Shown here one piece after another: positions 39,133 through 56,163 of a stretch of DNA of 64,000 nucleotides (position 1 is its first letter; each line of letters starts with the position of its first letter). Below the pieces are notes generated by a model. It was not told the DNA's origin and did no database searches. It was given only the letters and a program-made list of their open reading frames with translations. Source of the DNA: an uncultured Eubacterium sp. (GTDB lineage: Bacteria > Bacillota > Clostridia > Oscillospirales > Acutalibacteraceae); contig CALWID010000002.1 of the NCBI GenBank assembly GCA_944380635.1, forward strand, positions 38,897 through 102,896. The letters run 5' to 3'. The translations under genes and the position numbers were made by a program.

Positions 39133-40299
39133 TTAATCCGGCTCTGTTATATTTATATCTGCAAAAAGAAACGGATTAAAATTATGAACATCAAAAAGGT
39201 TGCTGCCGGGCTCGTTTATCAACCTTACTGCATTATCAATCATTATCTGCGGATGAGCTCCTCTGCTTTCATATATTTCTTTTAATATCGTAAGCTGCAC
39301 AATAAAATAATCCAGTGGATTTCCAAAACTCCGGTCATATCGAGCGTTTGGATTGCGGTTATTTGTAACTGTATATACAATCTCTTTAAATTTATTCCAA
39401 AATCCTACTGTTACTTTTTTATCATATTGCTGCAATATTTTTAAATATTCACTGTTTAACGGGTCATGCTTGCTATGAAGAAAATATACAAAATTTTTTT
39501 CACCTTCATTTTGAAAATATGTAAACATTACAAAATACAGCAGCATTGCACCAAGTGAATACAAATCCGATTGGGGACCTATCCGGTCTGTTTTACCTCT
39601 AAAAAGTTCATATGGAGCCCACGGCAAAGAGCAAGTTATGTCATCAGCTATTATTTTTTGGTTTAAATCAATAACCGAATCGAAATCAAACAACTTTATG
39701 CAAAAACCTATTCCGTCCGTATCATAAATAAAATTATCCGGTTTAATATCTGCCAAAATAAGGTGCTTTTTGTGAAATATATTTATAATTTTGCTTAACT
39801 TTATTAAAGCCTCTATCCGCTCGTTTATTGGGAAAGAACCGATATTATTTATTGCTGCGGTAGAATCAAAATCTAATAGTGAAAGGTAACAATATTTTCC
39901 CTGCTGTTTATTATATGAAATAATTGTATTTACACTTTTTTTATTCATTTCGCCGTCAGGCGGAATTACAAAATACCTTTTTAAGGAGTTTTCTTTATTA
40001 GAAATATCAAGAAGCAAGCTCCTTACCTGTTTCATCTTTTTAAAATGTGATTTAAAAAGTAATTCAAAGCTATTATTTGCTGAATCTATATTTCTAAGAC
40101 CGCCCGTTTGAGAAACAGGAAGATTATAATTTAAAGGAGCAAACTCTTTTAACATCTTAGTCTCAGAAGTGCCGTCAGAATATTTAACAGTACAGTAATA
40201 ACATCTGCAAGACGAACCTCGAGGAAGTATTTCGCTTTCAACAATAATACGGCGCCGTCCGATAAAATTTATTTTTTTACCTGTAAGCGTATCCTGCAT
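39133..40299 (-). CDS. Ser/Thr protein-kinase-fold protein with altered motifs
   Basis: A 388-residue kinase-like protein. A Gly-rich-like loop (PRGSSCRCYYC) and Lys in KMLKEF stand for the N-lobe. The catalytic loop is LADIKPDNF (Asp184, Lys186, Asn189), so the HRD His and Arg are replaced while the Asp is kept. DFG is DFD (205-207), APE is APYE (228-231), and the F-helix Asp is in GPQSDLYSLG. The remaining C-terminal part is helical and carries an NPF motif (375-377). Catalytic Asp, Lys and Asn are present, so activity is plausible. With the PP2C two genes upstream and the vWA proteins, it forms a kinase-phosphatase-vWA triad. Confidence 0.82.
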   Translation of the reverse strand: MQDTLTGKKINFIGRRRIIVESEILPRGSSCRCYYCTVKYSDGTSETKMLKEFAPLNYNLPVSQTGGLRNIDSANNSFELLFKSHFKKMKQVRSLLLDISNKENSLKRYFVIPPDGEMNKKSVNTIISYNKQQGKYCYLSLLDFDSTAAINNIGSFPINERIEALIKLSKIINIFHKKHLILADIKPDNFIYDTDGIGFCIKLFDFDSVIDLNQKIIADDITCSLPWAPYELFRGKTDRIGPQSDLYSLGAMLLYFVMFTYFQNEGEKNFVYFLHSKHDPLNSEYLKILQQYDKKVTVGFWNKFKEIVYTVTNNRNPNARYDRSFGNPLDYFIVQLTILKEIYESRGAHPQIMIDNAVRLINEPGSNLFDVHNFNPFLFADINITEPD

Positions 40300-40328
40300 T
40301 TAGCACCACTCCTGAATAATGTACAATT

Positions 40329-42452
40329 TTAATGATTGCAAATATACTTAAATACTGATATTGGCGAATCGCTTAAAAGGCAAAATATTATGATTCGCTC
40401 AAAAAGATTGGGCAGATAAAGTCCGTCAAATCCGCAATCTGCAAAAGTAAAATTGCACCACTCTTCAAAATCCTCAAAAACAGCCTTTACGATATTGCTT
40501 TTGTTTGAGTCATCGGCGGCAGATATCCACCCGTCAGGAGCAAGACAATATTCAATAAATAAAGCTTGTATTAAATATTCTTTTGTTACGGGAATTTTGC
40601 CATCAAGAATTGCATCTATGTTTCGTGATGAGAAAGTGCTTTTTTTAAATTGCACAAAACTGCCGCTGTTAATTTCAAACGAATCTGTAACGGCTTTTAT
40701 GGCAGTTGTATACTTAATGGCGCCAACGCGCTCATACCTGACTTTATGGTGACTCATTATATACTGTTCAACAGCGTCAATGGACCAATATCCCCTGTTT
40801 TTTTCATAATTTTTTTCAATGTAATCCTGCTGCCTTGCAGATGACACATAATCTTTAATAGCATTACAGCATTCGGTAAATCGTTTAAGAGCCTTTGAAT
40901 TCGTACCGCTTTTCGGCAAAGTGTTTAAGAAATTAAGAAGCCCCTTATCTTCATCAATATCATTAAAAATCTTTTTGTAATAATTTGTGCTTCGTACATT
41001 TTTATCTTCTGCGCTGTTTTTGATTTGTTTTTGGTACATTTCTACAAGATGGACATACCTTTCACATACATTTGTATGCTGAATAAGGCAATATGCTAAA
41101 ATGACCTCATAAGGATCTTTGTAATTTATTATTCTTTCTCCCAAGCAATGAACCAAAAGATTTTCCATCTGCTTATAGGCCATATTAAACGCAAGTGCCA
41201 CAAGAAAAACTTTTTCACGGTCAAACCTATATGCAATACCGGAGTTAGATGTATTGCTTATCAAAACAGTTTCTACATCTTTAAAAGTTTTGTTTGGATT
41301 TAAAATAAACGAACAAGAATATATGCCTTTTTTAGGCAAAGAATCCTCTGCAGCATCTGCACATTTTGCCAACAAATCATCATTTTGCGCGGAAATATAA
41401 ATCTTTTCGCCGCAAAAATCAACTATGTGAAACCGTTCCTCAGCAGAATTTATTGTTAAAATTTCATCTCTCAAATAAGTACCGCGGTAAATAGTTTCTT
41501 CATACGGATAGAACTCTATTGAAGCATTTTTTATATTCTGACTATCATGATGGTGTAACGCCACCGGTAAGCTTCGCTTTTTACCAAACATTTCTAAATA
41601 AGCAGTTTCATTGTATTCAGACTTTTTCAAAACACCGGACTTTTGAGCCTTTGACCTTTTCAAATAATGAAACTCTATCTTATCGCCCGCTTTGAAATCA
41701 ACCGGCTTACCTGTAATCAGTTTTAGTTTTTCATTCGCCAAAAGCAATGCTTTTTCCGGCCATGCGTGAGGAGATTGCACCCAATTATGTGCAAATTCCG
41801 CTATATATTTTTCCTTTCTCTGAATTTCTTGAGCTTCATGGCGCTTATATTTTTCCAAATTATAAGCGTCAAGCACAAGCTGTTCATCAACACAGTTAAC
41901 GCCGCTGTATTTTGGATCATAATAATCTATTCCCCAATCACGCAATAAGGCTTTGCGGCTTTCAGGCAATGCCCTTGAACTGTTAAATTTCCGCGGAATG
42001 AAATTTTTTTCCGAATACTCGTTAAGAATTTGCAGTCTTTTATCAATCGGAAGCGTCACAACGGCATCTGATATTTCTGAGATATGTATGTCTCTCAAAA
42101 CCCCATTATAATAAATTATTTTTTTGGTAAAGCTCAGCAAATTATCCTTAACAGCAGCTCTTATAAGCTCATTGCGCTTTCCGGTTAAATTTTTATTTGG
42201 CTTTCCTGTTTCTTTATCTAAACTGTAATATTTAGTAATCTCTGAATCCAAATCAACGGTTTTGCCGGAGTTTACGGCTTTTGAATATTCACTGTCAGGG
42301 AAAAGGCTGCAAATAAGCCGGTTATAATAAAAAATCGGCTTGATATCACCTATCTTTTTTATCAAGCCGGTTATAGTAACCTTGTCAAGGAATTTGTCTT
42401 GACGGTCATACATTTCTTGCACAACCTCATTCATTTTCTGAGTCATACCCAT
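40329..42452 (-). CDS. 707-residue protein of unknown family
   Basis: I do not recognise this 707-residue protein. It is hydrophilic, with no signal peptide or membrane segment. The N-terminal half has several Lys/Arg-rich helical stretches (KYKRHEAQEIQRKEKYI), the middle part (residues about 290-400) looks beta-rich and contains HHHDSQNIKN, and the C-terminal part is helical. It lies between the PP2C and kinase genes in what appears to be one transcript (69-base and 29-base gaps). By position it could be the substrate, scaffold or sensor of the kinase-phosphatase pair. That is inference from order only. Confidence 0.8.
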   Translation of the reverse strand: MGMTQKMNEVVQEMYDRQDKFLDKVTITGLIKKIGDIKPIFYYNRLICSLFPDSEYSKAVNSGKTVDLDSEITKYYSLDKETGKPNKNLTGKRNELIRAAVKDNLLSFTKKIIYYNGVLRDIHISEISDAVVTLPIDKRLQILNEYSEKNFIPRKFNSSRALPESRKALLRDWGIDYYDPKYSGVNCVDEQLVLDAYNLEKYKRHEAQEIQRKEKYIAEFAHNWVQSPHAWPEKALLLANEKLKLITGKPVDFKAGDKIEFHYLKRSKAQKSGVLKKSEYNETAYLEMFGKKRSLPVALHHHDSQNIKNASIEFYPYEETIYRGTYLRDEILTINSAEERFHIVDFCGEKIYISAQNDDLLAKCADAAEDSLPKKGIYSCSFILNPNKTFKDVETVLISNTSNSGIAYRFDREKVFLVALAFNMAYKQMENLLVHCLGERIINYKDPYEVILAYCLIQHTNVCERYVHLVEMYQKQIKNSAEDKNVRSTNYYKKIFNDIDEDKGLLNFLNTLPKSGTNSKALKRFTECCNAIKDYVSSARQQDYIEKNYEKNRGYWSIDAVEQYIMSHHKVRYERVGAIKYTTAIKAVTDSFEINSGSFVQFKKSTFSSRNIDAILDGKIPVTKEYLIQALFIEYCLAPDGWISAADDSNKSNIVKAVFEDFEEWCNFTFADCGFDGLYLPNLFERIIIFCLLSDSPISVFKYICNH

Positions 42453-42520: not shown

Positions 42521-43243
42521 TTATATCATAAAAGGGCGTACAATGCAATATGTTGCGTCATCAGTGAAACCTTTGCAATCTGTAATATTGCAAATTCGGT
42601 CGATATACTGTTTTGTTGAATTACAATTTTCGAACGCTCCATCAGTGGCAACAAAAAATTCCGTATTATAACTTACATATTTACCGGTTTTTATTCTCAA
42701 ATGTTCCTTAAAATGCAACGAATTAACCATATAGGTATACTGCTTTGTTACGCCGTTCTCAGGATATGATATTATCTGAGTATTATCATTTTCAGTTTTT
42801 GCAAAAAGACCATCGCCTATATGCACCGCGGTATAGCGCTTTGAATCCGTATCAACTGCGAGAAGCATTAGCGTACACATAAATTCTTGCGGGTCTGCAC
42901 TTAATCTTGCTGAAAGCCGGTTAAGTGATTGTCTCACAAAGCAGAGCATTTGTTTAGCCGTATCACACATATCGCCGTTAAATAACCCTATACCGTTTAT
43001 CTTACAAAAATCAACAGCTGCTCTGACACAGCAATTTGAAGTTTCTTTTGCAAAAGCGCTGCTTCCTGCGCCGTCAGAAATAGCAATATATATATAATTT
43101 TTGAAAACAGCAGTTTCTATTGCATCTTCATTATTTTCCCCGTTTCCTATGTGCTCTGTTCCCGCCTCGCTAAATGTTTGTATATAAATGTCATCATCTC
43201 CTTTGTTAATTTTATCAGCCAAATAATACATATCCGAAATCAT
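42521..43243 (-). CDS. PP2C-family protein phosphatase
   Basis: A 240-residue Mn2+/Mg2+-dependent Ser/Thr phosphatase of the PPM/PP2C family. The metal-ligand motifs are visible: NGENNED (Asp40), SDGAGSSAFAKE (Asp57), HIGDG (Asp144), ATDGAFE (Asp201) and TDDAT (Asp228/Asp229). It should reverse phosphorylation by the kinase two genes downstream. It is first in the leftward unit and is read away from the vWA gene across a 428-base AT-rich gap. Length is typical of PP2C in TerY-P-like triads. Confidence 0.9.
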   Translation of the reverse strand: MISDMYYLADKINKGDDDIYIQTFSEAGTEHIGNGENNEDAIETAVFKNYIYIAISDGAGSSAFAKETSNCCVRAAVDFCKINGIGLFNGDMCDTAKQMLCFVRQSLNRLSARLSADPQEFMCTLMLLAVDTDSKRYTAVHIGDGLFAKTENDNTQIISYPENGVTKQYTYMVNSLHFKEHLRIKTGKYVSYNTEFFVATDGAFENCNSTKQYIDRICNITDCKGFTDDATYCIVRPFMI

Positions 43244-43671: not shown

Positions 43672-46341
43672 ATGAAAAAGACCATTTCGTTTTTACTTTC
43701 ACTTATCTTAGTTGCAGTTATTTTTCCTGCCAGCAGTTTTGCAGAAGAAATGACTCAAGAAAAGGAATATAAAGCGCTTGACCTTGTTGTAGTAGTTGAT
43801 TCAAGCGGGTCAATGCTTTCGTCCGACCCTGATAGAATAGCTCCGGACGCCGTCAGAATGCTCACCAATATGATGCCGGCAGAAGACAGCCGCGTGGGGT
43901 TAATCAGCTTTAATGAACAGCCTACAGTTTTAACCACCACCGGCGAAGGTAACCCAACTTTAATAAGCCTTGAAGATTTTACAGGCGTAGAAACTATACG
44001 AACTGACATTGACTCTGTTGAATACAACGGAGGCACAGGAATCGGGAATGCGCTTAACGCTGCAACACAATTACTTAAAGATAATTCGCAGCAAGACCGC
44101 TCAAAAGCAATAATTCTCTTTACCGACGGTGTTAACGATTTTGATGATGACAAAATTGCTATGGCAGCGTGTGATGACAACGAAGCAACAGCTGTAAAGT
44201 GGGCAAAAGAAAATGCATGCCCAATATACTGCGTCGGCTATAATTATATAATGCCAAACGGTGAAAGCTCTATGGGCGAAAACGGCGAAGGTCTTCAAAA
44301 ACTGGAGAGCATTGCCTCAAATACTGATGGGCAGTTTAGGCAGTGCCAAAATATTGAAAACATGGAGCAAATGTTAATTGAATTCCTTGCCGATGTATGT
44401 GATGTTATCTTTGAAGAAGTAGACACAATTCCCGGCGACGGCGGATACCATGAATGCAATATAGAGGTTAGCCCAAGTGTAGTAGAAGTTAATATAAGGA
44501 TTAAAGGCGGCAATAAGGATGCCATAAAAAACGGTGAAGTGCATTTGTATTCTCCGGACGGGACTGAAATAAAATTAGAAAATTCTGGCAATGTGCGTTA
44601 TGATGTGGACGCTACCGCCGCCAGCATCAAGGTATTATTCCCTCAGTCCGGAAATTGGCTGCTCACCGTTAACGGAATAAGCGGCGAAGATATAAAAGTA
44701 AGCCGCCTTGAGCATTTTAAGATGAATCTTACAAGTGAGCTTATATTTCCGCAAGGAAATCCTGTAGGGGTAGCTTATACTAACGATACGGTAGGTATTA
44801 GGGCTTGGCTCTCATATGACGGTGCCGATATTACTGATACTGCTATTTATGATTCTGTTATTTCAGCTACGGCAACATGTGTATCAAGAGCAAATCAAGA
44901 CGATACTCAGACTGTACAGCTCACCAGAGACGGTAATGCATTTACCGGCTCATTCACAATACCTGAAGATTGTTATTATGATGTTACAATCCGTCTTGAC
45001 TGGGATACAGTATACAGAGAGGATACTCTTACCGTAGCATCCAGCAACAAGCCTGTAACACTAGTTAACAGCATTTCAGATGTGAATGTAAACAAAAACA
45101 AAACTGTAGAAATACCTGATTTATATAAATATGTAAATGATGACGAAGGAGACGCTGTAACCGCCAGCGTTTTAAATGTTGCATCACCGGATGTTGCAGA
45201 CGCTGTTATTGATGGGAACACATTGAAAATTACCGGCAAAAAATGGAGTTCCACACTTATTACTGTTCAGTACAGAGATGAGCAGGGCAACACAGTAGAT
45301 ACTACATTTAAGGTAAAAGTTTATGACCCTGTTGCTATGGCGCTTATAATTGGCGGTATTGTGCTGCTTGTAATTGCTGTGTTGCTTTTACTTTATTTGC
45401 TTAAAAAAGCATCAGAGCGTGTATCCGGAGCTATGAAAGTAGTGTATATAGCAAACGGTCGCATAGACAGTTCAAACAACTATAACAGCACGGAGTTGAT
45501 ATACGAAAATCCAAACATTAGTCACGATGCTAGTATGGCCAGTGATTACCAAAGCAACCAATTTTTAAACTCCTCGCCTTTAGACGATTCAAGCACTCCC
45601 TTTGGCGATACAAATAGTTCTTTTGGAGACTTAAACAGTCCTTTCGGCAATGAAAACAGTTCGTTCTCAAATCCAGCAGATATAAGCAGTCCTTTTGCCG
45701 AGCAAGGTAATGATATCTTTTCCACTTCATCCCCGTTTGATTCAAGCGGCAATGATTCGTTTGGTCAATATTCTCCATTTTCAAGCAGCGCAAGCGCGCC
45801 AATTGAAAAGGCGGAAAACGATACTGATAAAACTGATGATGCTAATAATATACCGGTTTCGGGTATGGAGTTTGGAAATATTCCGCAGGCAAACGAAAAT
45901 AATGAACAGGAACTTGACAGAAGCAACGAGTTCGATGAAAAAATATCAGTCGGCGGCAGCCGCGTGCGTAAAACAGACCTTAAAAAAGTGTTAGACAGGT
46001 TTGTAAAGACATACAAGGAATATATGGAATTCGGCGGCAAAAACAGCGTTATGTCAGATAAAATCGCTAACTTCATAATGCAATACTCTGCCGTATTTTC
46101 AAAAATAAAATTGCTTGGAACACTATATGGCAAAGGCGGTATAATCCTTAAGCCGGATAAAGATTCGGCCAAAAGAAACAACTTTATTATTCATTCCCCA
46201 AGCTTGATAAAGGGCAAGGCAACAATGAATCCCAAACGAGGCAAAACAAAAATTTCCGTATCAATTATAACCGGAGAAAAAGCAAAAGACGGCTCCTTCC
46301 CCTGCGCTCATATTGAGATTGAATACGGTAAAAAATATTAA
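43672..46341 (+). CDS. Membrane-anchored von Willebrand A protein with SPF-repeat cytoplasmic tail
   Basis: An 889-residue protein. Residues 1-25 are a signal peptide (MKKTISFLLSLILVAVIFPA). The vWA domain follows with an intact MIDAS: DSSGS at 43-47 and LFTDGVND later. Beta-sandwich domains come next, then a cadherin-like Ig domain (about 470-550). A TM helix lies at about 555-577. The cytoplasmic tail has a Ser/Asn/Asp-rich stretch (about 635-710) with repeated TPFG, SPFG, SPFA, SPFD and SPFS, then a folded C-terminal domain of unknown family. AAAGGAG precedes the ATG. It heads the rightward unit and would link an outside metal-dependent adhesive domain to the inside. Confidence 0.85.
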   Translation: MKKTISFLLSLILVAVIFPASSFAEEMTQEKEYKALDLVVVVDSSGSMLSSDPDRIAPDAVRMLTNMMPAEDSRVGLISFNEQPTVLTTTGEGNPTLISLEDFTGVETIRTDIDSVEYNGGTGIGNALNAATQLLKDNSQQDRSKAIILFTDGVNDFDDDKIAMAACDDNEATAVKWAKENACPIYCVGYNYIMPNGESSMGENGEGLQKLESIASNTDGQFRQCQNIENMEQMLIEFLADVCDVIFEEVDTIPGDGGYHECNIEVSPSVVEVNIRIKGGNKDAIKNGEVHLYSPDGTEIKLENSGNVRYDVDATAASIKVLFPQSGNWLLTVNGISGEDIKVSRLEHFKMNLTSELIFPQGNPVGVAYTNDTVGIRAWLSYDGADITDTAIYDSVISATATCVSRANQDDTQTVQLTRDGNAFTGSFTIPEDCYYDVTIRLDWDTVYREDTLTVASSNKPVTLVNSISDVNVNKNKTVEIPDLYKYVNDDEGDAVTASVLNVASPDVADAVIDGNTLKITGKKWSSTLITVQYRDEQGNTVDTTFKVKVYDPVAMALIIGGIVLLVIAVLLLLYLLKKASERVSGAMKVVYIANGRIDSSNNYNSTELIYENPNISHDASMASDYQSNQFLNSSPLDDSSTPFGDTNSSFGDLNSPFGNENSSFSNPADISSPFAEQGNDIFSTSSPFDSSGNDSFGQYSPFSSSASAPIEKAENDTDKTDDANNIPVSGMEFGNIPQANENNEQELDRSNEFDEKISVGGSRVRKTDLKKVLDRFVKTYKEYMEFGGKNSVMSDKIANFIMQYSAVFSKIKLLGTLYGKGGIILKPDKDSAKRNNFIIHSPSLIKGKATMNPKRGKTKISVSIITGEKAKDGSFPCAHIEIEYGKKY

Positions 46342-46984: not shown

Positions 46985-49900
46985 ATGCTTGATAAAAAAC
47001 TTGTAAAAAACCAGCTTGAAGAACTTTCCGCAAAAGGCGGCGGCAGCCTTGTTAAAAGGGTTATCAAATCAAAGCTGAACTCCAATTCCAAAATTCTTGT
47101 TATAGGTCTTGGCGGCATGGGTTGCAAAACCGTAAACGCAATGAAGAGAATATACAGCAACGAATTTGCGAGCAGCTCAAATATAAGATTTCTTGCAATT
47201 GATACGGATTCGAATGCTTTAAGCAAAGTGGCTGTTATAAACGGCGGATATCTTTCTCCCGGTGAATCTTTTGAAATATATTCATCTGAGGCAAGGAACC
47301 TCCTTATAGACCGCCCCCCGATAGTCAGACAATGGCTTTCTAACTCGGTTGAATCCCGCCCCATTAATCCGGACGGCGCTCAGGGTGTTAGAGCAGTAGG
47401 CCGCGTTATGCTGTGCGGCACAAGCAAATACGAAGCGCTCAGAGACTATATCTCCGGCATAATGGATGAACTTTCAATGAATATGACCGAAACCGAAAAA
47501 CTGAATGTTGTTTTGGTTGCGGGAATTTCCGGCGGCACCGGAAGCGGCACATTTATTGATGTGGGGTATATGATAAGAAGTTTGCTCAAAGAGAAAAAAG
47601 ACAATAACAGCGTTGCATCAGAATATTTCGGCATATTCTATACCCCCGATGTACAGAAAAGCGTGCCGGAAATCGGCGGAGATGAGGCTACATATTCTAA
47701 TTTAAGACGCAACGGCTATGCCGCCCTTAAAGAACTTGATTACTTTATGACCGTGGGCAAGGAAAGCAGCGGAAAACCTGTATACTCAGTACAGGTGCCG
47801 AGCGGAAAAGTGTATTCTTCTACGCAGCCTATGTTTGATAAAAACAGAGTCTTTATTATTTCCGCTACTGCAAAATGTTCAAAGTGCGATGATATAATTA
47901 AATCGACTGCTGCAAGCTTCCTTAATATGTTCAGAGACGGTGAAAGAGATGATAATGGCACTCAATCTGTTATCAGCACACTGTGCAACAAAAACGGTCA
48001 GATGGCTACATGGGTGGTCAACAACGCTGCCACAGCTGCGAACAATCTTGAAAGTGACCCAAGCGGTAATATAAACTGCAGTTTCCCGGCATTTATGAAC
48101 TATAACTACGCTTCATTCGGCTACAGGTCTATTTATTTCCCACGCAATGAAATGGCGGCATATTTTGCCAATGAGGCCTTTATGCGCGTATATGATGTTT
48201 GGAAGCGCGCGTTTCAATTTACACAAAAAACAATTGACGGTCTCGCACAACAATGCGGAATAGGTGATTTTGACGCTGTTTACACAAGCGCCTGCGCTGC
48301 TCTTGGTATAAACAGCGATGAATTCAGAATCAAACCGGAGGATCATGACAATTATCCCGTAAGAAGAGGCACCTCATTATTGGGCAGGGTTACAGGGCTT
48401 GACGATACCGTAGCAGCTGCCAAAGGATTAGTGGATGCAAAACTTCGCGCTATAGGCAATCCAAGCCCTAAAATTATCAGCCAAATCGTTTCACCGATAA
48501 TTGCAAACGTAAAAGGCTTAATCCTTGACAATTCCACTTTCCTTGAAAATTACGGACCTTACGGTGGTATTGTGGCGCTGTCCGGCAACAACGGAAATCC
48601 CTGCGGACTTATTGATATACTCGGCGGGTTTATTAATAATTTCAATACGGTTTTAAATAATAAACAGGAAAAGCTGAGAGTAGCACAGTCTAATCTTGAC
48701 GCGGGAAAAACAACTTTAGCAAATGATTCAAACCCTCATGATGACGAGATAGAAGCATTTATAGACATTTGCCAGCAGTTTTCAAAAACATATTTTGAAG
48801 AGGAATTTTACCGTTTATATATGCCGCGTATTCTCAGCGGGCTTGTAACAGAGCTCAACGCTCTTAATTCAGAAACATTTGAGATTTTCGTTCCGGTTAT
48901 TGACGCACTTAAGGATTTACTGAATGAAGATTCAGTTGCTTTTTCCGATTCCATATATCAAAGAACCGGCAATACAACTACATATTCGCTGAACGCGTTC
49001 AATATGAACAGTGCGCTTCAGTCGAACGGTTTATTCCGCTCTCTTTTTGACGGATATGTCGATAACGAAAAAGTAAAGCAAGTTGCCGATGGTTTCGCAA
49101 AAAGCATTTTCGGCAAGGACTCCAGAGAAAAATGGAAAAAAATTGTTTCTGATCCGGCAGTGCTTGCAGATGAGCTCAGGTCAATCTTTAATAGTGTAAC
49201 CGCGCCGATTGTAACAGATATGCTTCAAAAGCTAATTGTTATCATCTATGGGAATAGTGCAAGCCTGCTCCAAGCTGCAGGTTCACAGGGCCAAACCATA
49301 TCCATTGAAGACATTAATAGAATTTGGAATAACACCAGTGTTCGCGACACAGCTCTCAGAAGCGCCGCGAAAAACATTGTTGACGCATTAACAGGCAATA
49401 TTATGACGGCTTTTGATGTGCCTGATACGCAAATAAAGCAAATATCGCGTTCGGCATCAGTTATTTTGCTTAATGAAACTCCTGAATTAAATCACTTTAT
49501 AGAACTGGAACTGCAAAGGGTTTTCGGTCAACAATATTCTTGCAGTTATGTCGGCAATTCGCACACTTGCGAAAGAAAGACAGAAGTAACTATGGCAATG
49601 ATGCTTGCCCCGTTTTCTCTTCCTATTGTAAAAAATATGAAAGATTATGCCGAAAGATATTTTAAATCCGAGCGAGGTGAAACTTCTGCAGCAGGCCGCC
49701 ATCTTGACGAAGTAACGGAATGCTGGCAGTTTAATCTTCCAGAAATATACGGCGCAGACGCTGAAGATTATTTCGGAGGCCCAATCTTTAACAGGACAGA
49801 CGCTGCCATCACTCCGGAATACCGTAAAATGAATGATGACGGCACTGTAAAAGACAATGACCGCGAACAGTACGAGAGAATTCGCAAAGCTGTTGAATAC

Positions 49901-50827
49901 GGCATAAAGAACGGATTCATATACAAGGACGATACAATTAAAAAATACGAAATGATAGTGCTTAACAGCGGCGGAATCAACAAAAATGATCCTCGCCCGG
50001 AGCTGTTGAAAAGAATCAGCAGCGTACTGCCCGAAATCAGGCTTGATCAGCAAAATGACAGCCTGACTTGGATTGACGCTCTTAAATACATCGAAGAAAC
50101 CGAGCACCATACAATGCATGAGGAAATCGTTATAGACGAATATGTTAACAACGAAGCATTAAAGAACAGAGAATGCATTGAACCATCAGACCCTTACGAA
50201 TACAAAAATATTTACAGAATTTTCCGTGCTGATATGCGTATGACAAAGATTTTGTTTGAAACTGCGGAATACTTTAAATCCATGCAGTTCTTTGAGAATC
50301 TTGAAAATATATCAAATCTTGGCTCTGTGGTTGAACTTTTCCTGAACGCGTTTAAATGCGGCCTTATTACTCATAATGAGGAAAACAGAACATGGCTTGT
50401 TAAATACAGCAATAACATTTATAACACTGATGTTTTGTTCTTTGATGAAAAGTTACGCAAGAGCGATGAATTTGATCAGCCGCTTAGCTGGTATCTGCTC
50501 ATTTCTGCATTTGCAGAAAAAGCACTTGAGCCTAAGATTAAAGATGGAATTACAGCCATTTATAATGAAAAGGTTCATAATATGAGCGGCTTTGAGAGCG
50601 TTGAAACTATCGTAAATGAGATAATAAGCATGCTTGACAGCCCCCTGTTTACAAATTCAGACGCAGATATTAGAGATATGCAGATACGCAAGTGCTATTC
50701 CAACTCAAATTACAGAAAGTACTATTCATATCCGACTGCATTTTCCGGCACTGACAGCATTATTAACAATGTTAAACAGATAATTAATACTGTTAAAGAT
50801 TACGCAAGATTCAAAGGGGTTAATTAA
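46985..50827 (+). CDS. Giant tubulin/FtsZ-superfamily protein (Tubulin_2-like)
   Basis: A 1280-residue protein. KILVIGLGGMGCKTV (36-50) is the N-terminal nucleotide-binding loop, and AIDTD follows. The tubulin signature is GISGGTGSGTF (180-190), equivalent to GGGTGSG in FtsZ, so GTP binding is expected. Only the first 400 or so residues fit a tubulin/FtsZ core; the remaining 880 are mainly helical and not recognised. FtsZ is under 450 residues, so this is a large derivative. It has no membrane segment. It lies between two vWA membrane-protein genes. A polymerising or switch-like GTPase beneath the membrane is inferred. GAGGTAAT precedes ATG 46985. Confidence 0.82.
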   Translation: MLDKKLVKNQLEELSAKGGGSLVKRVIKSKLNSNSKILVIGLGGMGCKTVNAMKRIYSNEFASSSNIRFLAIDTDSNALSKVAVINGGYLSPGESFEIYSSEARNLLIDRPPIVRQWLSNSVESRPINPDGAQGVRAVGRVMLCGTSKYEALRDYISGIMDELSMNMTETEKLNVVLVAGISGGTGSGTFIDVGYMIRSLLKEKKDNNSVASEYFGIFYTPDVQKSVPEIGGDEATYSNLRRNGYAALKELDYFMTVGKESSGKPVYSVQVPSGKVYSSTQPMFDKNRVFIISATAKCSKCDDIIKSTAASFLNMFRDGERDDNGTQSVISTLCNKNGQMATWVVNNAATAANNLESDPSGNINCSFPAFMNYNYASFGYRSIYFPRNEMAAYFANEAFMRVYDVWKRAFQFTQKTIDGLAQQCGIGDFDAVYTSACAALGINSDEFRIKPEDHDNYPVRRGTSLLGRVTGLDDTVAAAKGLVDAKLRAIGNPSPKIISQIVSPIIANVKGLILDNSTFLENYGPYGGIVALSGNNGNPCGLIDILGGFINNFNTVLNNKQEKLRVAQSNLDAGKTTLANDSNPHDDEIEAFIDICQQFSKTYFEEEFYRLYMPRILSGLVTELNALNSETFEIFVPVIDALKDLLNEDSVAFSDSIYQRTGNTTTYSLNAFNMNSALQSNGLFRSLFDGYVDNEKVKQVADGFAKSIFGKDSREKWKKIVSDPAVLADELRSIFNSVTAPIVTDMLQKLIVIIYGNSASLLQAAGSQGQTISIEDINRIWNNTSVRDTALRSAAKNIVDALTGNIMTAFDVPDTQIKQISRSASVILLNETPELNHFIELELQRVFGQQYSCSYVGNSHTCERKTEVTMAMMLAPFSLPIVKNMKDYAERYFKSERGETSAAGRHLDEVTECWQFNLPEIYGADAEDYFGGPIFNRTDAAITPEYRKMNDDGTVKDNDREQYERIRKAVEYGIKNGFIYKDDTIKKYEMIVLNSGGINKNDPRPELLKRISSVLPEIRLDQQNDSLTWIDALKYIEETEHHTMHEEIVIDEYVNNEALKNRECIEPSDPYEYKNIYRIFRADMRMTKILFETAEYFKSMQFFENLENISNLGSVVELFLNAFKCGLITHNEENRTWLVKYSNNIYNTDVLFFDEKLRKSDEFDQPLSWYLLISAFAEKALEPKIKDGITAIYNEKVHNMSGFESVETIVNEIISMLDSPLFTNSDADIRDMQIRKCYSNSNYRKYYSYPTAFSGTDSIINNVKQIINTVKDYARFKGVN

Positions 50828-50843
50828 AGAAATTATTTCAACG

Positions 50844-50893: not shown

Positions 50894-52345
50894 ATGAAAA
50901 AAAGCAAAAAGCAATCAAATGTGATTAAGCATATAGCGATTACCGCTGTTTCGGGAGCACTGTTTTGGATAGTTGGTGAATTAATTTTTCCGCACCTTAC
51001 TGAAGAAATGCCTGCTCCGTTCGGAATTCCTATATATATGCTTGTATTTTTTATTTTTGTTGCGGTTGCATTAATTGCTTTATCATTTTATAAAACAGAT
51101 TTTTCAGATCCCAAAAATAAGAGCAATATAATCTCTTCCACAAAAATCACTGCAATAACGCTTGTTGTATTTTTGCTTGCAAGCGGTCTGTTTGAATTTC
51201 TTTACGAACTCGGAAAGCAGGAAATACCCGAACCCACATCAGTAATAATTATGTTTGATGATTCCGGATCAATGAAGGGAACGGAGCAGGAACGGGCAGA
51301 TGCCGTTAACTCCCTTATGCAAAGCGATGCAGCGGACATGCCGTATGCGGTATATAGTTTTACCGATTCTGCGCAATGTATAAGGCCTATGGGTTCTTAC
51401 AACGGTTTTAGCACAGATGAACTTCAATTTAGTTCCGAAGGCGGCACTGAAGTTATAAAATCTATCCGCGAAGTGTTAGGAGATTTTGAACAAGGGCGTC
51501 TTTCCGGTTCGGGCAGTAATCCAAAAATCATAGTAATCAGCGACGGAGCCAGCAGCTCGGCAAATATGAATTCAGTAACTTCAAGATGCAGAAACTCCGG
51601 AATAAGCGTAAGCACTATAGGGGTATCAAATTGCAACAAGAATTTTTTGGAAAAGATAGCACACAAAACCGGAGGAGTTTTTGTTTATTGCAGTGATATT
51701 TCTTCACTTGCTCAAAATATCGGTTCTGCAATGCAGGTGGACACAAGCAGAAATTTACTGTCTGAGAGAATAGTCTTTAAAAATAACGCGCTATATGCAT
51801 TCCTTAGGATACTGTTTTTAACTATTCTTGCTGCCGTTTGGTCATTTATGAAAGTACAACTTACATATGAACGCAGTGATAAAACAACTCGTATCTTTTT
51901 AATTTCATTTGCCGCTTGCGTTGCCGGTGGCATTCTTGTAGAATGCTTAGCAAACAGTTCATTATCCATAAAATTTGTAAGGTTCATTTTCTGTGTTCTT
52001 TGGGCATTAACGCCGGGCACTGCAATGTTTTTGAAAAAAAATCAAGCAAGTGCGGCAATAGATATAAACCCTGCAAAAACAGGCGATAACATCAGTTATA
52101 ATGATGACGCGCAAAAATCTGTTAATTATAAACCGGATAATCAATCATCAACTACTCGGCAGCGTATTACCCAAAACGGCAATGACTCATATCAAACAGA
52201 TAATTCTCAGGACAACAGCAATCCGTTTGGAAACGGCCCGTTTTCTGATAATTCCGGCGATTCGGCTGATTCTCCCTTTGGCAACTTTGATGATCCGTTT
52301 AGTGATTTAAACGATCCATTTTCTGATAATAAGACTAATTGGTAA
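50894..52345 (+). CDS. Multi-pass membrane vWA protein with NPF/DPF tail
   Basis: A 483-residue protein. Three N-terminal hydrophobic segments (about 14-31, 48-66, 85-105) precede a vWA domain with intact MIDAS DDSGSM (122-127) and VISDGASS. Three more segments follow (about 302-320, 335-352, 358-376). The C-terminal 100 residues are hydrophilic and end with SNPFGNGPFSD, DSPFGNFDDPFSD and NDPFSD. GGGGGG lies ahead of ATG 50894. The vWA topology (BatA/BatB-like) suggests a scaffold or metal-dependent protein-binding role. The tail motif is shared with the other vWA and zinc-ribbon proteins of this unit. Confidence 0.85.
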   Translation: MKKSKKQSNVIKHIAITAVSGALFWIVGELIFPHLTEEMPAPFGIPIYMLVFFIFVAVALIALSFYKTDFSDPKNKSNIISSTKITAITLVVFLLASGLFEFLYELGKQEIPEPTSVIIMFDDSGSMKGTEQERADAVNSLMQSDAADMPYAVYSFTDSAQCIRPMGSYNGFSTDELQFSSEGGTEVIKSIREVLGDFEQGRLSGSGSNPKIIVISDGASSSANMNSVTSRCRNSGISVSTIGVSNCNKNFLEKIAHKTGGVFVYCSDISSLAQNIGSAMQVDTSRNLLSERIVFKNNALYAFLRILFLTILAAVWSFMKVQLTYERSDKTTRIFLISFAACVAGGILVECLANSSLSIKFVRFIFCVLWALTPGTAMFLKKNQASAAIDINPAKTGDNISYNDDAQKSVNYKPDNQSSTTRQRITQNGNDSYQTDNSQDNSNPFGNGPFSDNSGDSADSPFGNFDDPFSDLNDPFSDNKTNW

Positions 52346-52362
52346 TAAACAGGAGGCACATA

Positions 52363-53481
52363 TTGATTATTAAATATTGTCCCGAATGTATCGGCAAGCC
52401 ATATACGAAAAATCTTGATACTTTGAACTGCCCTGTCTGCGGCGCAGCGCTGGCGTCCGAGTTTGTAGGGGAAGACGAACTTTTTGCCAGAACGCAGCTT
52501 CCGGATAAAACTCCTGCAAGCAATTCTTCTTTTGATGGGACAGACATTTTTGCCCCCGAAAATGAAAAATTTGACGGTTATGAATCAAGTGACCCTCAAA
52601 ACATATTTGGAAACCCATTTGAAAACAATGATGATATAACACCATTCAACTCCGGTCCGCCGGCTGCCGAAATTAACTCTGCTGAACATCAGAATCCAGT
52701 TGTTTCCAGAAGCAACAGCGGCAACAGCGAAAATAAGAAAATGGAAAAAGTAATACGCGGCAAAGTGGCTTCCTATAGCAGTACAGGTAAAGAGGATGGC
52801 TCATACAGGCGCTTATTACTGCCAAAGTTATTTGACGCACTTATTTATCATCAACGCCTTGAAGATGTCCTGCACAGATTTACAGTTCGTGTCAACGCCG
52901 GCCAGGACATAATGGGATTTGGCAATTATATAGATGTTCCCGTAAATGTTCACGGTACAATTTCCGGCGGAATGCAGATTACTGATAATTGTGAAGTAGA
53001 AGTAAAAGGAAAATATAAAAATCATGTACTTATGGCACAAACCATTGATGTTATTAACAACGGATATAAAAGCAGAGTTAAATTTCAGCACTCAACCAAA
53101 GCTATATTTTATTCAATATTATTATTCATTGCGGCGGTTGTAACTATATATTTTGCGGCTACGTCCAACGGAAACTTTTTGAGCGAATTAAAGTATTTTA
53201 TGATAACCTGGGCGATTATTGCCGCTATAACTACTGTTTTATATATTATAATTTCCTTTTCAAAACTCGGCCTGTTGGCACGCTTTGCAAGCAAAAGTAC
53301 AAAGCGGTTTCCCTTAATTGGAATTTTGGTAATTTCATTTATAGCAACTGTAATATTTTTAAAATGCCTTGGCGGCGTAGCAGGCTTAGGCAGTTTGTTT
53401 TCAAACCTGCTCATTGCATTACTGCCGTTAATAATCCTGATAGCAGGCGTTATAATTCTTTTTAAAGCAATAATCAAATAA
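52363..53481 (+). CDS. Zinc-ribbon membrane protein with PF-motif linker
   Basis: A 372-residue protein starting at TTG 52363, six bases after AGGAGG; an in-frame ATG at 52339 lies inside the previous gene and has no ribosome site. The N-terminus is a zinc ribbon, CPEC and CPVC (about residues 5-31). A disordered acidic linker follows with DIFAPE, NIFGNPFEN and ITPFNSG (about 60-110), then a beta-rich domain, then four C-terminal hydrophobic segments (about 245-370). The family is not recognised. Its position between vWA and HerA genes, plus the shared motif, suggests a membrane partner of both. Confidence 0.75.
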   Translation: MIIKYCPECIGKPYTKNLDTLNCPVCGAALASEFVGEDELFARTQLPDKTPASNSSFDGTDIFAPENEKFDGYESSDPQNIFGNPFENNDDITPFNSGPPAAEINSAEHQNPVVSRSNSGNSENKKMEKVIRGKVASYSSTGKEDGSYRRLLLPKLFDALIYHQRLEDVLHRFTVRVNAGQDIMGFGNYIDVPVNVHGTISGGMQITDNCEVEVKGKYKNHVLMAQTIDVINNGYKSRVKFQHSTKAIFYSILLFIAAVVTIYFAATSNGNFLSELKYFMITWAIIAAITTVLYIIISFSKLGLLARFASKSTKRFPLIGILVISFIATVIFLKCLGGVAGLGSLFSNLLIALLPLIILIAGVIILFKAIIK

Positions 53482-53496
53482 AGTGGTGCTGCAAAA

Positions 53497-56163
53497 TTGA
53501 AACGAAGCGACATAGAAAACAAAAGCAAGGAAATTACTGAAAAGTATTTCTCAATGCTTTCAGAAATGACACGCGAAAAAACAGATAGCGAAGCTCCCCC
53601 TGTTAAAGATGCAAAAGATTATTTCTACATAAAGGTGGAGGAAATATCAAAACGCTGGATAACTGACGAGAGACCAATCTGGGATATTATGACCGAATTA
53701 TTCGTTGGTCTTAGCGCCATATCTATTCCTGTTTCGGTGGTATTCAGCAATGATTCGGTGAAAACAAGCGTTTTTTTCGGTTGCAAGAGCGAGCATATAG
53801 ATGTTTTGGACGGTATGCTGAACGGAACATTTGCACAGATACAGTATTCAAAAAACGAGCGTTCAAACACTGAAATTTTTACTTTTGCTCAAACCGGCAC
53901 AAAAGGCAGATTCGGCGGGTTTCTTAAAGGCAATCCGACAGGGGATTGCAATTTTAGCGCTCCTTTTCAAATAGATTCCATTATAAAAGGAATGGCGGGT
54001 AATTCTTGGAATATTTCAATTTTTGCTCAACCGGTGCAACGCCCAAAAACCGTACTCAGACAGCAATACTGGCTGGCTCAGTCTACACAATGCAGTGAAC
54101 TCTCAGACATATCCTTTACTGATAATGATAATGTTGAGGCTGTTACATATAAAAAAAATTACTATCATAGTGAGCAATACCGTGAAAAGGTGGATGCCTT
54201 TAATGAGCGGTCGGCCGAATGCATTGCCTCAGGCGAATGGTGTGTAACCATTAATTTTTCAACCGAGCGAAAAGATACATGCCGCTTATTGGGCGGGCTT
54301 CTAACATCTGCTTTTTACGGCGAGCAATCCGTTCCGGAACCTGTTCACGCAGTGTTTTTTGAAGGTGAAGAACCAAAATATATAGTTGACGGATTCGAAT
54401 ATACGCACCGGGCATTTTGCGATATTCCCTATCCAAAATATTCAACTTTACTCAGCAGCAGAGAGCTTGCGATATATTCTGCTTTACCAACAATGGATAC
54501 AAGCGGATTTTCTGTAAATGAATATGTTGAATTTGATGTTAACAGAAATATAGACGGCGATTTGGTAATAGGAAACATTCTTGACTGTGAAAGGGTAACA
54601 AAAAATCCTTACAAAATCAATGCCAATGAATTAAATCGGCACTGCCTTGTTACGGGCCTGACCGGTTCGGGAAAAACAAACACTATAAAAAGTCTGGTCT
54701 ACAATCTTACGCAAGGGGCAAAACTGCCGATAATGGTAATTGAACCTGCTAAGAAAGAATATTGGGAGCTTTTTAAACTCGGCTATAATAATCTTCAAAT
54801 CTATAGTGTTGGCTCAAGCGAAAAAAATGCCTGCACGCTATGCCTTAATCCTTTTGAGTGCGCTGCATATATTGATTCAGGCGGTAAAAGATCAACTGTT
54901 TCGATACAAACGCACATAGATTTTGTGTTTGCTGCTTTTAAGGCAAGTTTTATTATGTACACTCCTATGCCGTATGTTCTTGAAAAAGCAATATATTCAA
55001 TATATGAAGATTGCGGCTGGGACATACGAAACAGTATAAATAAAAACGGAGAAGAAATATACCCCACAATTGAAGACCTTTATTATAAAATTCCGCAAAT
55101 AGTAAATGATATGGGATACGATGCACGCATGCGAAATGACCTTATAGGCTCTCTTCAGGCAAGAATCAATTCTATGCGCTTGGGAGCAAAAGGAGATGCC
55201 CTTAATGTATCACGCTCGTTTCCTATGCATGTTCTTTTGGAAGGAAACTGCATAATAGAACTTGAAGATGTTGGTGATGACGATGTTAAAGCATTTATTA
55301 TTAGCATCCTGCTTGTAAATCTTTTGGAATACAGGCGCAAACAGGATGATTGCCAGCTTAAGTTACGCCACTTAATGCTGATTGAAGAGGCACATCGACT
55401 ATTAAAAAATGTGCAAAGCGGCGTTGGCGAAAACGCCGATCCACGAGGCGCCGCCGTTGAGTTTTTTTGCAATCTGCTTGCAGAACTGAGAAGCAAAGGC
55501 CAAGGATTTATAGTTGCAGACCAAATTCCTTCAAAATTAGCACCGGATTTAATAAAAAACACCAATCTTAAAATTGTTCATAGAACTGTTGATGAAGAGG
55601 AACGGCTGCTAATAGGCGGAGCAATGCATATGACGCCGGATCAAATAGATAGTTTGGCATCCTTAAAACAGGGGGTGGCAGCAGTTTATTCAGAAGGTGA
55701 TGAACGGCCCAAATTAGTCCGTTCAAGATACGCAGGAGAATACATATCTCAGGACGCGGTTAATCTTACGAGAGAAAATGTTTTGCTGCTGACAAGGTCA
55801 AATAATATTACCACTGAAGGATGCCCGGATTATTGCACACTAACAAATCGGCAAAACGAAATTTGCAGATATTGTGATTCACATTGTAAAAAAAATTATA
55901 GAGACATACTTAATGATGTAGATGACAAAAGATGTTTCTTTGACTTTGCCGCGCAGCTAAACCCTAATATAAGAAAAAGCTGTATAGTAAATAAGATTAA
56001 AGAAAGTATTACTGAATTTTGCACTCTTCATCTATGTAAACATTCTGAAAACAGCACTAAGGATATGTCCTGCATATTAAATTGCCTGCTTGATGAATGG
56101 AACTTAAATAAAAAACTACAAAATAAACTAATAAAGGTGTATAATAAGAGTAAAGGAGAATAA
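53497..56163 (+). CDS. HerA/DUF87-family ATPase
   Basis: An 888-residue ATPase of the HerA-FtsK superfamily. Walker A is GLTGSGKT (387-394), Walker B is MLIEEAH (about 627-633), and QGFIVADQIPSKL plus HRTVDEEER near 660-700 are typical HerA motor segments. The first 350 residues are an unrecognised N-terminal region. The end carries a Cys-rich cluster, CPDYC then CRYCDSHC (about 775-796), a possible metal site. HerA ATPases form hexameric pumps for DNA or protein. It starts at TTG 53497. The LHH-nuclease gene begins one base after its stop, so the nuclease may be its cargo. Confidence 0.88.
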   Translation: MKRSDIENKSKEITEKYFSMLSEMTREKTDSEAPPVKDAKDYFYIKVEEISKRWITDERPIWDIMTELFVGLSAISIPVSVVFSNDSVKTSVFFGCKSEHIDVLDGMLNGTFAQIQYSKNERSNTEIFTFAQTGTKGRFGGFLKGNPTGDCNFSAPFQIDSIIKGMAGNSWNISIFAQPVQRPKTVLRQQYWLAQSTQCSELSDISFTDNDNVEAVTYKKNYYHSEQYREKVDAFNERSAECIASGEWCVTINFSTERKDTCRLLGGLLTSAFYGEQSVPEPVHAVFFEGEEPKYIVDGFEYTHRAFCDIPYPKYSTLLSSRELAIYSALPTMDTSGFSVNEYVEFDVNRNIDGDLVIGNILDCERVTKNPYKINANELNRHCLVTGLTGSGKTNTIKSLVYNLTQGAKLPIMVIEPAKKEYWELFKLGYNNLQIYSVGSSEKNACTLCLNPFECAAYIDSGGKRSTVSIQTHIDFVFAAFKASFIMYTPMPYVLEKAIYSIYEDCGWDIRNSINKNGEEIYPTIEDLYYKIPQIVNDMGYDARMRNDLIGSLQARINSMRLGAKGDALNVSRSFPMHVLLEGNCIIELEDVGDDDVKAFIISILLVNLLEYRRKQDDCQLKLRHLMLIEEAHRLLKNVQSGVGENADPRGAAVEFFCNLLAELRSKGQGFIVADQIPSKLAPDLIKNTNLKIVHRTVDEEERLLIGGAMHMTPDQIDSLASLKQGVAAVYSEGDERPKLVRSRYAGEYISQDAVNLTRENVLLLTRSNNITTEGCPDYCTLTNRQNEICRYCDSHCKKNYRDILNDVDDKRCFFDFAAQLNPNIRKSCIVNKIKESITEFCTLHLCKHSENSTKDMSCILNCLLDEWNLNKKLQNKLIKVYNKSKGE

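What the first reader, a model, noticed from the sequence alone, without database searches (positions are those of the whole stretch)
39133..56163. Divergent kinase/PP2C/vWA signalling unit wired to a giant tubulin-like GTPase and a HerA pump
Seen: kinase-fold protein, 707-residue orphan and PP2C run leftwards. From the same 428-base gap, vWA, tubulin-like GTPase, membrane vWA, zinc-ribbon membrane protein and HerA ATPase run rightwards. Known: vWA, PP2C and kinase form the TerY-P-type triad of predicted stress or defence systems. Inference: phosphorylation controls a membrane-bound assembly with a GTPase switch and an ATP-driven pump. I know of no characterised system with this full set.
Basis: partly seen in the sequence, partly recalled or inferred. 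Interest (0 to 1): 0.9.

Follow-up and report, generated by a model that had tools for sequence, protein, structure and literature searches.

The report
Tubulin-HerA machine with polymorphic toxin cargo
A gut bacterium carries a conserved set of membrane, tubulin-like and ATP-pump genes that is nearly always followed by an interchangeable toxin-like gene, usually with an antidote-like gene, so it looks like an undescribed machine for handling, and probably exporting, bacterial toxins rather than the kinase-controlled unit first proposed.

Summary
The leftward kinase / 707-aa orphan / PP2C arm is not inherited with the rest: no homologue in 15 related loci, and the orphan is absent from those 15 genomes. 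The rightward arm is a real unit but ends too early. One base after the HerA-like gene lies a Ser/Gly/Asp-rich protein ending in an LHH nuclease domain, then a SUKH-type immunity gene. In 14 of the 15 members whose downstream side is visible, the next ORF is such an acidic low-complexity protein. Its C-terminus varies (LHH, WHH/colicin DNase, GH-E; further cargoes TNT, glutamine deamidase): a polymorphic-toxin pattern. All 11 LHH and colicin-DNase matches in 22 HerA-positive genomes lie within 2 kb of the HerA-like match. The ATPase model's best PDB matches by E-value are from a type IV secretion system, at low TM-score. Tails of three membrane proteins share Phe repeats matched within each locus. 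Best reading: a toxin-export machine, export itself inferred. My searches found no description in print.

The parts
43672..46341 (+). VWA1: exported/anchored vWA protein; signal-like segment 5-23, vWA with MIDAS DSSGS, TM 556-574, then a disordered-looking tail with [ST]PFG-type repeats
   Evidence: homologues 34-57% identical (long segments) in the 7 loci with an adjacent tubulin
46358..46680 (+). partial duplicate of the tubulin gene's 5' end (323 bp, 97%); probably a relic
46985..50827 (+). TUB: 1280-aa Tubulin_2 (FtsZl1-type) GTPase; T1 (GGxG) and T4 (SGGTGSGT) motifs kept
   Evidence: full-length homologues in 7 of 15 loci
50894..52345 (+). VWA2tm: multi-spanning membrane vWA protein, MIDAS DDSGS, C-terminal PFG/DPF tail
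52339..53481 (+). ZnR: CxxC...CxxC zinc ribbon, disordered Phe-rich linker, predicted OB-fold domain, four hydrophobic C-terminal segments
   Evidence: (alignment A4)
53497..56163 (+). HerA/VirB4-like ATPase, the most conserved component; Walker A GLTGSGKTNT
56165..57271 (+). toxin-like cargo: Ser/Gly/Asp/Glu-rich N-terminal region (about 230 aa) plus C-terminal LHH nuclease domain
   Evidence: LHH residues present in 8 of 8 sequences printed
57277..57690 (+). SUKH-type immunity-like protein
   Evidence: PF14567 SUKH_5 above cut-off; homologue present in 7 of 7 related loci that carry the LHH cargo
57755..59722 (+). TIR-LRR protein, possible accessory; homologue (about 40%) downstream of the toxin/immunity pair in G368
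59790..62111 (+). 773-aa membrane protein, recurrent neighbour at 22-28% identity (L065/G029 in part, L066, L068, L075/G368); no Pfam match
62131..62448 (+). 105-aa RyR-domain protein, recurrent neighbour (G029 85%, L068 66-71%)
42521..43243 (-). PP2C-like phosphatase; NOT part of the conserved unit
   Evidence: 0 of 15 loci
40329..42452 (-). 707-aa orphan; NOT part of the conserved unit; one distant relative (G206), directly after a protein kinase gene
39133..40299 (-). kinase-like protein (Pkinase model positions 78-204 of 263); NOT part of the conserved unit
   Evidence: 0 of 15 loci

Best explanation
The rightward run 43672-57690 encodes a polymorphic-toxin system with its own machine. SHOWN by comparison: (a) a core of zinc-ribbon/OB membrane protein + HerA/VirB4-like ATPase + cargo, usually with an immunity-like gene; (b) cargo with an acidic Ser/Gly/Asp-rich N-terminus and a variable C-terminus that is a known toxin domain in most loci; (c) in about half of the loci an adjacent vWA1-tubulin-vWA2 module; (d) within-locus matching Phe-repeat tails on VWA1, VWA2 and ZnR. 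INFERRED: the ATPase is the export motor. It docks on ZnR at the inner face of the membrane, recognises the disordered acidic N-terminus of the cargo (perhaps through EL[YMFLI] motifs present in about half of them), and drives the toxin out of the cell. The vWA proteins, with their vWA domains outside, act as contact or envelope sensors or scaffold. The tubulin-like GTPase assembles on the membrane and gathers VWA1, VWA2 and ZnR through their Phe-repeat tails. The immunity protein protects producer and kin. The kinase/PP2C arm is a neighbour in the same low-GC island, not a part.
For: Next ORF after HerA is an acidic Ser/Gly/Asp-rich protein in 14 of 15 members with the downstream side visible (window + 14; L073 is cut off; in L077 it lies 5 kb on). 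Polar N-terminus (at least 60% GSDENTY in the first 70 aa) in 20 of 20 cargoes against 1 of 466 other ORFs. Toxin domains: LHH x8, WHH/colicin DNase x2, GH-E with a SUFU immunity gene, plus Gln_amidase, TNT x2 and a CD38-like match below cut-off in further cargoes. LHH 3 of 3 and colicin-DNase 8 of 8 matches in 22 HerA-positive genomes lie 0.5-2.0 kb from the HerA match; colicin-DNase occurs in 8 of 20 HerA-positive against 3 of 374 HerA-negative genomes (Fisher 1.4e-9). Model ranks 1-6 in PDB by E-value are chains of the R388 type IV secretion system (named TrwK/VirB4 in 7o42/7o43; the 8rtd chains taken as the same by length). Phe-context similarity of tails within loci exceeds all 20,000 permutations and all 1000 composition shuffles. 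EssC (T7SS) is over cut-off in only 2 of 16 genomes.
Against: No export has been shown and no known export signal is on the cargo. TM-scores of the ATPase model to the VirB4 chains are low (0.25-0.30); shorter HerA (4d2i, 0.50) and TrwB (0.52-0.55) chains score higher when normalised by target length, and sequence profiles find HerA. HerA-nuclease pairs are also known as intracellular anti-phage complexes, and the ATPase matches PADLOC mad8 (2.2e-18) and HerA models. The predicted OB fold resembles ssDNA-binding proteins (no match at E 0.001; best 0.014), which would also suit DNA handling. Tubulin is not adjacent in 8 of 15 loci (3 of these, L068, L071, L073, lie at a contig edge and cannot tell), and no Tubulin_2 match exists in 2 of the 15 genomes (L069, L076), so it is not essential. 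A Tubulin_2-TIR fusion (L111) hints at an intracellular role. Cargo of L074, L076 and L078 has no recognised toxin domain. The 15 loci were found with two short peptides, so they are a sample of close relatives.
Confidence: 0.6

Rival explanations
1. Intracellular conflict (abortive-infection) system: the vWA/tubulin assembly senses invasion and the HerA-like ATPase with the nuclease/NADase effectors kills or arrests the infected cell; the 'immunity' gene is an antitoxin.
For: Kaur et al. 2020 place Firmicutes tubulin + two-vWA loci in intracellular conflict systems and see no sign of effector secretion in most of their systems. HerA-nuclease anti-phage complexes are known (listing only). The ATPase matches PADLOC mad8 (2.2e-18) and HerA models. 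Tubulin_2-TIR fusion. NACHT-WD40 and TIR-LRR neighbours.
Against: Effectors come with the toxin-specific immunity families of polymorphic toxins (SUKH, SUFU; SUKH or DUF6985 in the wider set) and keep a similar N-terminal region while the C-terminal domain changes. Both vWA proteins appear membrane-inserted, one with a signal-like segment. PADLOC models match none of the vWA, tubulin and ZnR proteins at E 0.1, nor the cargo and immunity proteins at 0.001.
Confidence: 0.25
2. DNA-handling machine: the HerA-like pump with the OB-fold protein moves DNA (uptake, transfer or segregation) and the nuclease processes it.
For: Family matches far below cut-off to CedD, VirB4 and HerA DNA translocases; OB fold like PriB/SSB.
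Against: Further cargo in the same loci is a glutamine deamidase or a TNT-type enzyme, which do not process DNA; the immunity genes have no place in this model.
Confidence: 0.06
3. Divergent kinase/PP2C/vWA signalling unit (TerY-P type) controlling the GTPase and the pump, as first proposed.
For: Head-to-head arrangement from one 428-base gap. Makarova and Koonin 2010 list protein kinases as frequent in vWA/FtsZl1 operons; Kaur et al. report kinase + PP2C + vWA in some actinobacterial GAP1-N2 loci.
Against: No homologue of kinase, orphan or PP2C in 15 related loci, and no orphan in the 15 genomes; none upstream of VWA1 where sequence was held.
Confidence: 0.05
4. The toxin/immunity pair is an unrelated cassette that happens to sit behind the pump.
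For: Toxin cassettes are mobile and occur in islands (general knowledge). 5 of 13 colicin-DNase matches in the order are away from any HerA-like gene.
Against: 14 of 15 members; different toxin families in the same slot; 1-base spacing in the window; 11 of 11 matches near HerA in 22 genomes.
Confidence: 0.04

Closest known systems
FtsZl1 (Tubulin_2)/vWA loci, Makarova and Koonin 2010 (PMC2875224; parts 1-2 of 5 read)
   Same: Long Tubulin_2 protein beside vWA proteins with signal/TM segments and MIDAS motifs; proposed membrane-remodelling role
   Different: No HerA (0 occurrences in the listing), and no toxin/immunity pair in the parts read; here no P-loop GTPase partner was recognised next to the tubulin
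GAP1-N2 tubulin systems of Firmicutes, Kaur et al. 2020 (PMC7159879; section 29 and passages read)
   Same: Tubulin proteins plus two vWA proteins, one multi-spanning with an extracellular vWA
   Different: No GTPase partner recognised here; 'HerA' occurs once there, in a reference; effector secretion is argued against for most of those systems; 'SUKH' has 0 occurrences
[quoted passage not shown] 2012 (PMC3482391; passages read; first 300,000 of 357,715 characters held)
   Same: LHH, WHH and GH-E nuclease toxins; SUKH immunity with LHH; constant N-terminus, variable C-terminus
   Different: Trafficking modes in the passages seen do not include a tubulin/vWA/ZnR/HerA set (HerA only as the T7SS ATPase); 'dynamin' has 0 occurrences
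Type VII secretion (EssC, LXG/WXG toxins)
   Same: FtsK/HerA-superfamily ATPase exporting polymorphic toxins in Firmicutes
   Different: No WXG/LXG match on the cargoes scanned; EssC over cut-off in 2 of 16 genomes only
Type IV secretion ATPase VirB4/TrwK
   Same: Best PDB matches by E-value of the predicted ATPase fold
   Different: Low TM-score; no other T4SS component recognised among the neighbours scanned
HerA-Sir2 / HerA-DUF4297 anti-phage pairs (titles; not read)
   Same: HerA-type ATPase with a nuclease or NADase
   Different: Other partners; here immunity-like genes and membrane components
TerY-P triad
   Same: kinase, PP2C and vWA in one neighbourhood
   Different: vWA is large, exported and belongs to another unit; a row that looks like the triad (L101: kinase, vWA, second vWA-like, PP2C) has none of this machine beside it

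Membership tests
Polymorphic toxin system | variable C-terminal toxin domains on a similar N-terminal region | tested here: met
   LHH, WHH, GH-E, Gln_amidase, TNT behind acidic Ser/Gly/Asp-rich N-termini; 3 cargoes (L074, L076, L078) without a recognised domain
Polymorphic toxin system | cognate immunity gene next to the toxin | tested here: met
   SUKH-type in the window and 7 LHH relatives, SUKH in L071, SUFU in L077: 10 of 15; small ORFs without Pfam match in L074, L076, L078; NADAR gene further on in L069; none seen in L072 (not scanned)
Polymorphic toxin system | toxin delivered to other cells | not testable with these tools
   needs secretion and competition assays
Type VII secretion system | EssC ATPase plus WXG/LXG substrates | tested here: not met
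   (2 of 16 genomes over cut-off); no WXG/LXG Pfam match on the cargoes scanned
Type IV secretion system | VirB4-type ATPase fold | tested here: inconclusive
   ranks 1-6 by E-value, TM-scores 0.25-0.30
Type IV secretion system | VirB3/6/8/10 channel components | not tested
   no dedicated search was run
GAP1-N2 tubulin conflict system | tubulin and two vWA proteins, one multi-spanning | tested here: met
GAP1-N2 tubulin conflict system | P-loop GTPase partner with zinc ribbons | tested here: not met
   no GTPase other than tubulin among the window ORFs scanned with Pfam at 43672-62448
GAP1-N2 tubulin conflict system | GAP1 protein | tested here: inconclusive
   nothing named GAP1 in the Pfam scans; GAP1 was not searched for on its own
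TerY-P triad | kinase, PP2C and small cytosolic vWA co-inherited | tested here: not met
FtsZl1 / Tubulin_2 | GTPase domain with GGTG(S/T)G loop and long C-terminus | tested here: met
   Pfam 1.9e-50; GGxG and SGGTGSGT in 8 of 8; C-terminus not modelled
HerA DNA translocase | DUF87/HerA ATPase core with Walker A | tested here: met
   (Walker A in 16 of 16)
HerA DNA translocase | full-length HerA equivalog | tested here: not met
   38.7 bits against a cut-off of 970

The most novel reading that the evidence does not exclude
A previously undescribed class of protein-export machine in Gram-positive gut bacteria: a VirB4/HerA-type ATPase on a zinc-ribbon/OB membrane base pushes toxins with an acidic Ser/Gly/Asp-rich 'ticket' out of the cell, while a tubulin-like (here) or dynamin-like (wider family) membrane GTPase builds the site; nucleoporin-like Phe-repeat tails on three membrane proteins cross-link the site, or act as a selective entry mesh, for the disordered cargo.
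Probability: 0.4. Interest if true: 0.95.

Novelty: new variant of a known kind. Interest (0 to 1): 0.85.

Why it matters
Tubulin_2/vWA loci were described in 2010 as a predicted membrane-remodelling machinery. Their linkage, through a HerA/VirB4-like ATPase, to interchangeable toxin-immunity pairs gives them a concrete, testable job and would add a new export route to interbacterial competition in gut Clostridia; 14 of the 16 genomes tested lack an EssC over cut-off. Phe-repeat tails matched within each locus would be an unusual bacterial parallel to nucleoporins. The wider family pairs related ATPases with dynamin-like GTPases and nuclease toxins, suggesting a general rule: pump + membrane GTPase + toxin.

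Tried and rejected
Rejected: TerY-P/kinase control as part of the conserved unit (0 of 15 loci); type VII export as the general route (EssC over cut-off in 2 of 16 genomes); chance toxin neighbour. Tried without result: Rfam on 38000-64000 (0 matches); PDB sequence search for four cargoes (0 matches each at 0.01); promoter/terminator scan (terminator-like 18 found, 16.2 expected; promoter-like 94 found, 63.4 expected, sd 8.0; not used); plain FG-dipeptide counts, significant (p below 0.05) in only 10 of 30 membrane proteins, so the Phe-context test was devised afterwards; the [NSDTG]PF motif is enriched in the membrane proteins of three loci only (window, L066, L072). Against my reading: 5 of 13 colicin-DNase matches in 394 genomes (G126 x3, G346, G420) are not next to a HerA-like gene. 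The EL[YMFLI] motif was noticed by eye first and is in 10 of 21 cargoes only. The cargo set includes second cargoes and L062/L063, which were picked by eye, and lacks the first cargo of L069, found later (polar fraction 0.93). The tail tests use 7 loci; L077, which has all three proteins but no such tails, was left out, and part of the within-locus likeness is composition (shuffled difference 0.054 against 0.155 observed). The dynamin neighbours were chosen by position and look.


Full report
OBSERVATION. The eight genes are present at the stated coordinates and strands, with the stated 428-base divergent gap. The region lies in an A+T-rich stretch: G+C falls from about 0.45 to about 0.34 near 34 kb. 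The contig ends at the window's right end.

THE UNIT IS DRAWN WRONGLY. A tubulin search in 148 genomes (own included) found one full-length homologue elsewhere (G029, same genus); its locus has vWA1, tubulin, membrane vWA, zinc-ribbon protein and HerA-like ATPase in the same order (with one extra small ORF between membrane vWA and zinc-ribbon genes), but no homologue of the kinase, orphan or PP2C. G368, from another family of the order, repeats this. tblastn finds the kinase, orphan and PP2C in 0 of 15; vWA1, tubulin and membrane vWA together in 7 of 15; ZnR in 13 of 15 (a 14th, L076, only by blastp at 3e-5); and the ATPase in 15 of 15 by construction. Upstream of vWA1, five further stretches hold no homologue of these genes (L085 has only about 1.3 kb). 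The orphan is absent from all 15 genomes and present in 1 of 294 other genomes of the order, G206, directly after a protein kinase gene. Kinase and orphan may therefore be a unit of their own.

The run continues 1 base after the ATPase with a 368-aa protein: about 230 residues rich in Ser, Gly, Asp and Glu, then an LHH nuclease domain (2.4e-19). Five bases later comes a 137-aa SUKH_5 protein. Of 16 members (window + 15), 15 show their downstream side (L073 is cut off). In 14 of these 15 the very next ORF is such an acidic low-complexity protein; in L077 it comes about 5 kb later, after MotA-like and MotB/OmpA-like genes among others. Its C-terminus is LHH in 8 (window, L064-L068, L070, L075; by Pfam in the window, G029 and G368, by BLAST in the rest), WHH/colicin DNase in 2 (L071, L072) and GH-E with a SUFU immunity gene in 1 (L077). 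L074, L076 and L078 have no Pfam match, and the first cargo of L069 was not scanned with Pfam. Further cargoes are TNT (L064, L070), a CD38-like match below cut-off (L066) and Gln_amidase (L069; followed two ORFs on by a NADAR antitoxin-family gene).

CONTROLS. In 22 ATPase-positive genomes chosen without regard to toxins, LHH has 3 matches and colicin-DNase 8; all 11 lie 531-1992 bp from the ATPase match. Some of these loci were already known to me, so the test is not blind, but the search was genome-wide. Across 394 genomes of the order (taken to be the same sample in both calls), colicin-DNase occurs in 8 of 20 ATPase-positive and 3 of 374 ATPase-negative genomes (Fisher p = 1.4e-9). Those 3 genomes hold 5 of the 13 matches, away from any HerA-like gene. 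N-terminal polarity of at least 0.60 was met by 20 of 20 cargoes and by 1 of 466 other ORFs (some cargoes were picked by eye). EL[YMFLI] occurs 25 times in 21 cargo N-termini against 3.5 expected and at most 11 in 3000 shuffles, but in only 10 of the 21; L069's first cargo has six copies.

PARTS OF THE MACHINE. ATPase: Walker A kept in 16 of 16, EEAH of the presumed Walker B region invariant in the 15 aligned. Sequence profiles find HerA; NCBIfam's nearest model is NF033849 'serine-rich protein', 96.8 bits against a cut-off of 650. The AlphaFold model (mean pLDDT 73, pTM 0.48) has chains of the R388 type IV secretion system, named or taken as TrwK/VirB4, at ranks 1-6 by E-value, with alignments along most of its length; their TM-scores are 0.25-0.30, and shorter HerA and TrwB chains score up to 0.55 by target length, so this is a lead, not proof. 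ZnR: CxxC pairs, a disordered linker (pLDDT below 50 over most of 58-135), a domain with PriB/SSB-like OB matches (best E 0.014) and four hydrophobic segments. Tubulin: GGxG and SGGTGSGT motifs invariant in 8 of 8. MIDAS motifs are seen in the 6 vWA1 ORFs that include the vWA N-terminus (the L066 and L077 ORFs used lack it) and in 8 of 8 membrane vWA proteins.

PHE-REPEAT TAILS. VWA1 and VWA2 tails and the ZnR linker carry Phe repeats of similar flavour within a locus: PFG (window, L066, L072), AFGG (L067), VFG (G029, weak in ZnR), GFGF (G368). Similarity of residues around Phe is 0.50 within loci against 0.37 for permuted loci, reached by none of 20,000 permutations, and the within-between difference is reached by 0 of 1000 composition-preserving shuffles. 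Seven loci were tested; L077 lacks such tails and was left out. The likeness to nucleoporin FG repeats is my analogy.

WIDER FAMILY. Other HerA-like ATPases in the order (26-38% identical) have a recognised toxin domain beside them in 10 of 18 further ATPase-positive genomes (8 colicin-DNase, one Endonuclea_NS_2, one Gln_amidase; the rest were not all scanned), with SUKH or DUF6985 genes in the five pairs scanned (L048, L049, L051, L053, L059). All nine large neighbours tested (8, one) are dynamin-family GTPases. L076 has a gene matching DO-GTPase families below cut-off. Tubulin_2 is found in 13 of the 15 genomes when non-adjacent copies are counted, though in L070, L071, L074 and L078 only distant copies.

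MECHANISM. I propose an export machine (0.6): ATPase motor on a ZnR base, recognising the acidic N-terminus of the toxin, with a GTPase-built membrane site and outward-facing vWA domains. Shown: gene linkage, toxin polymorphism, intact active-site motifs, tail matching. Inferred: export, recognition, assembly, topology. The main rival is an intracellular suicide system (0.25), favoured by Kaur et al.'s view of tubulin/vWA loci, by PADLOC matches of the ATPase and by a Tubulin_2-TIR fusion (L111).

LITERATURE. Makarova and Koonin 2010 (PMC2875224, parts 1-2 of 5 read) and Kaur 2020 (PMC7159879, section 29 and passages) describe tubulin/vWA loci; Zhang 2012 (PMC3482391, passages) describes the toxins. 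Other papers were seen as search listings only. Ten searches in the held open-access library listed no paper that, by title and abstract start, joins tubulin or dynamin, HerA and polymorphic toxins; 'dynamin' + 'HerA' + 'polymorphic toxin' together gave 0 papers. Many listings were capped, and subscription papers and preprints are not held.

Noticed in passing
window 46358-46680: 323-bp, 97% identical copy of the 5' end of the tubulin gene just upstream of it; partial duplication. Second tubulin genes, split or degraded, occur in G029 and G368, and two lie close together in G484.
   Followed up: partly
window 57755-59722: TIR domain, basic stretch, one hydrophobic segment (seen by eye), then LRRs: a Toll-like layout in a bacterium, with a homologue (about 40%) in G368.
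   Followed up: partly
L111 607-2355 (-) (G486): Fusion of Tubulin_2 and TIR in one 582-aa ORF; its TIR is 46% identical to that of the window's TIR-LRR protein.
   Followed up: partly
L049, L050, L051, L053, L055, L056, L057, L059: Dynamin-family GTPase beside a longer HerA-like ATPase with a WHH/colicin or NS nuclease: a sister system. SUKH or DUF6985 next to the nuclease in the four of these scanned (L049, L051, L053, L059).
   Followed up: partly
window 34386-39013: NACHT-WD40 STAND protein, inositol monophosphatase and DUF4062 protein on the - strand beside the kinase arm; G+C drops near 34 kb.
   Followed up: no
L101 946-4677 (G420): Compact row of kinase, vWA, second vWA-like and PP2C genes that looks like a TerY-P type triad.
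   Followed up: no
L081 6851-10079 (G206): Protein kinase gene followed directly by a relative of the 707-aa orphan's C-terminal half: kinase-orphan pairing elsewhere.
   Followed up: partly
L077 12691-15392: MotA/ExbB-like and MotB/OmpA-like genes directly after the HerA-like gene, suggesting a proton-motive component.
   Followed up: no
L065 14096-15094, L067 14902-15912: Transglutaminase-like protein soon after the immunity gene in two loci.
   Followed up: no
L069 12757-14028: Cargo with six ELY/ELI motifs and an unknown C-terminal domain; a NADAR (DarT1-type) antitoxin-family gene lies further downstream.
   Followed up: partly
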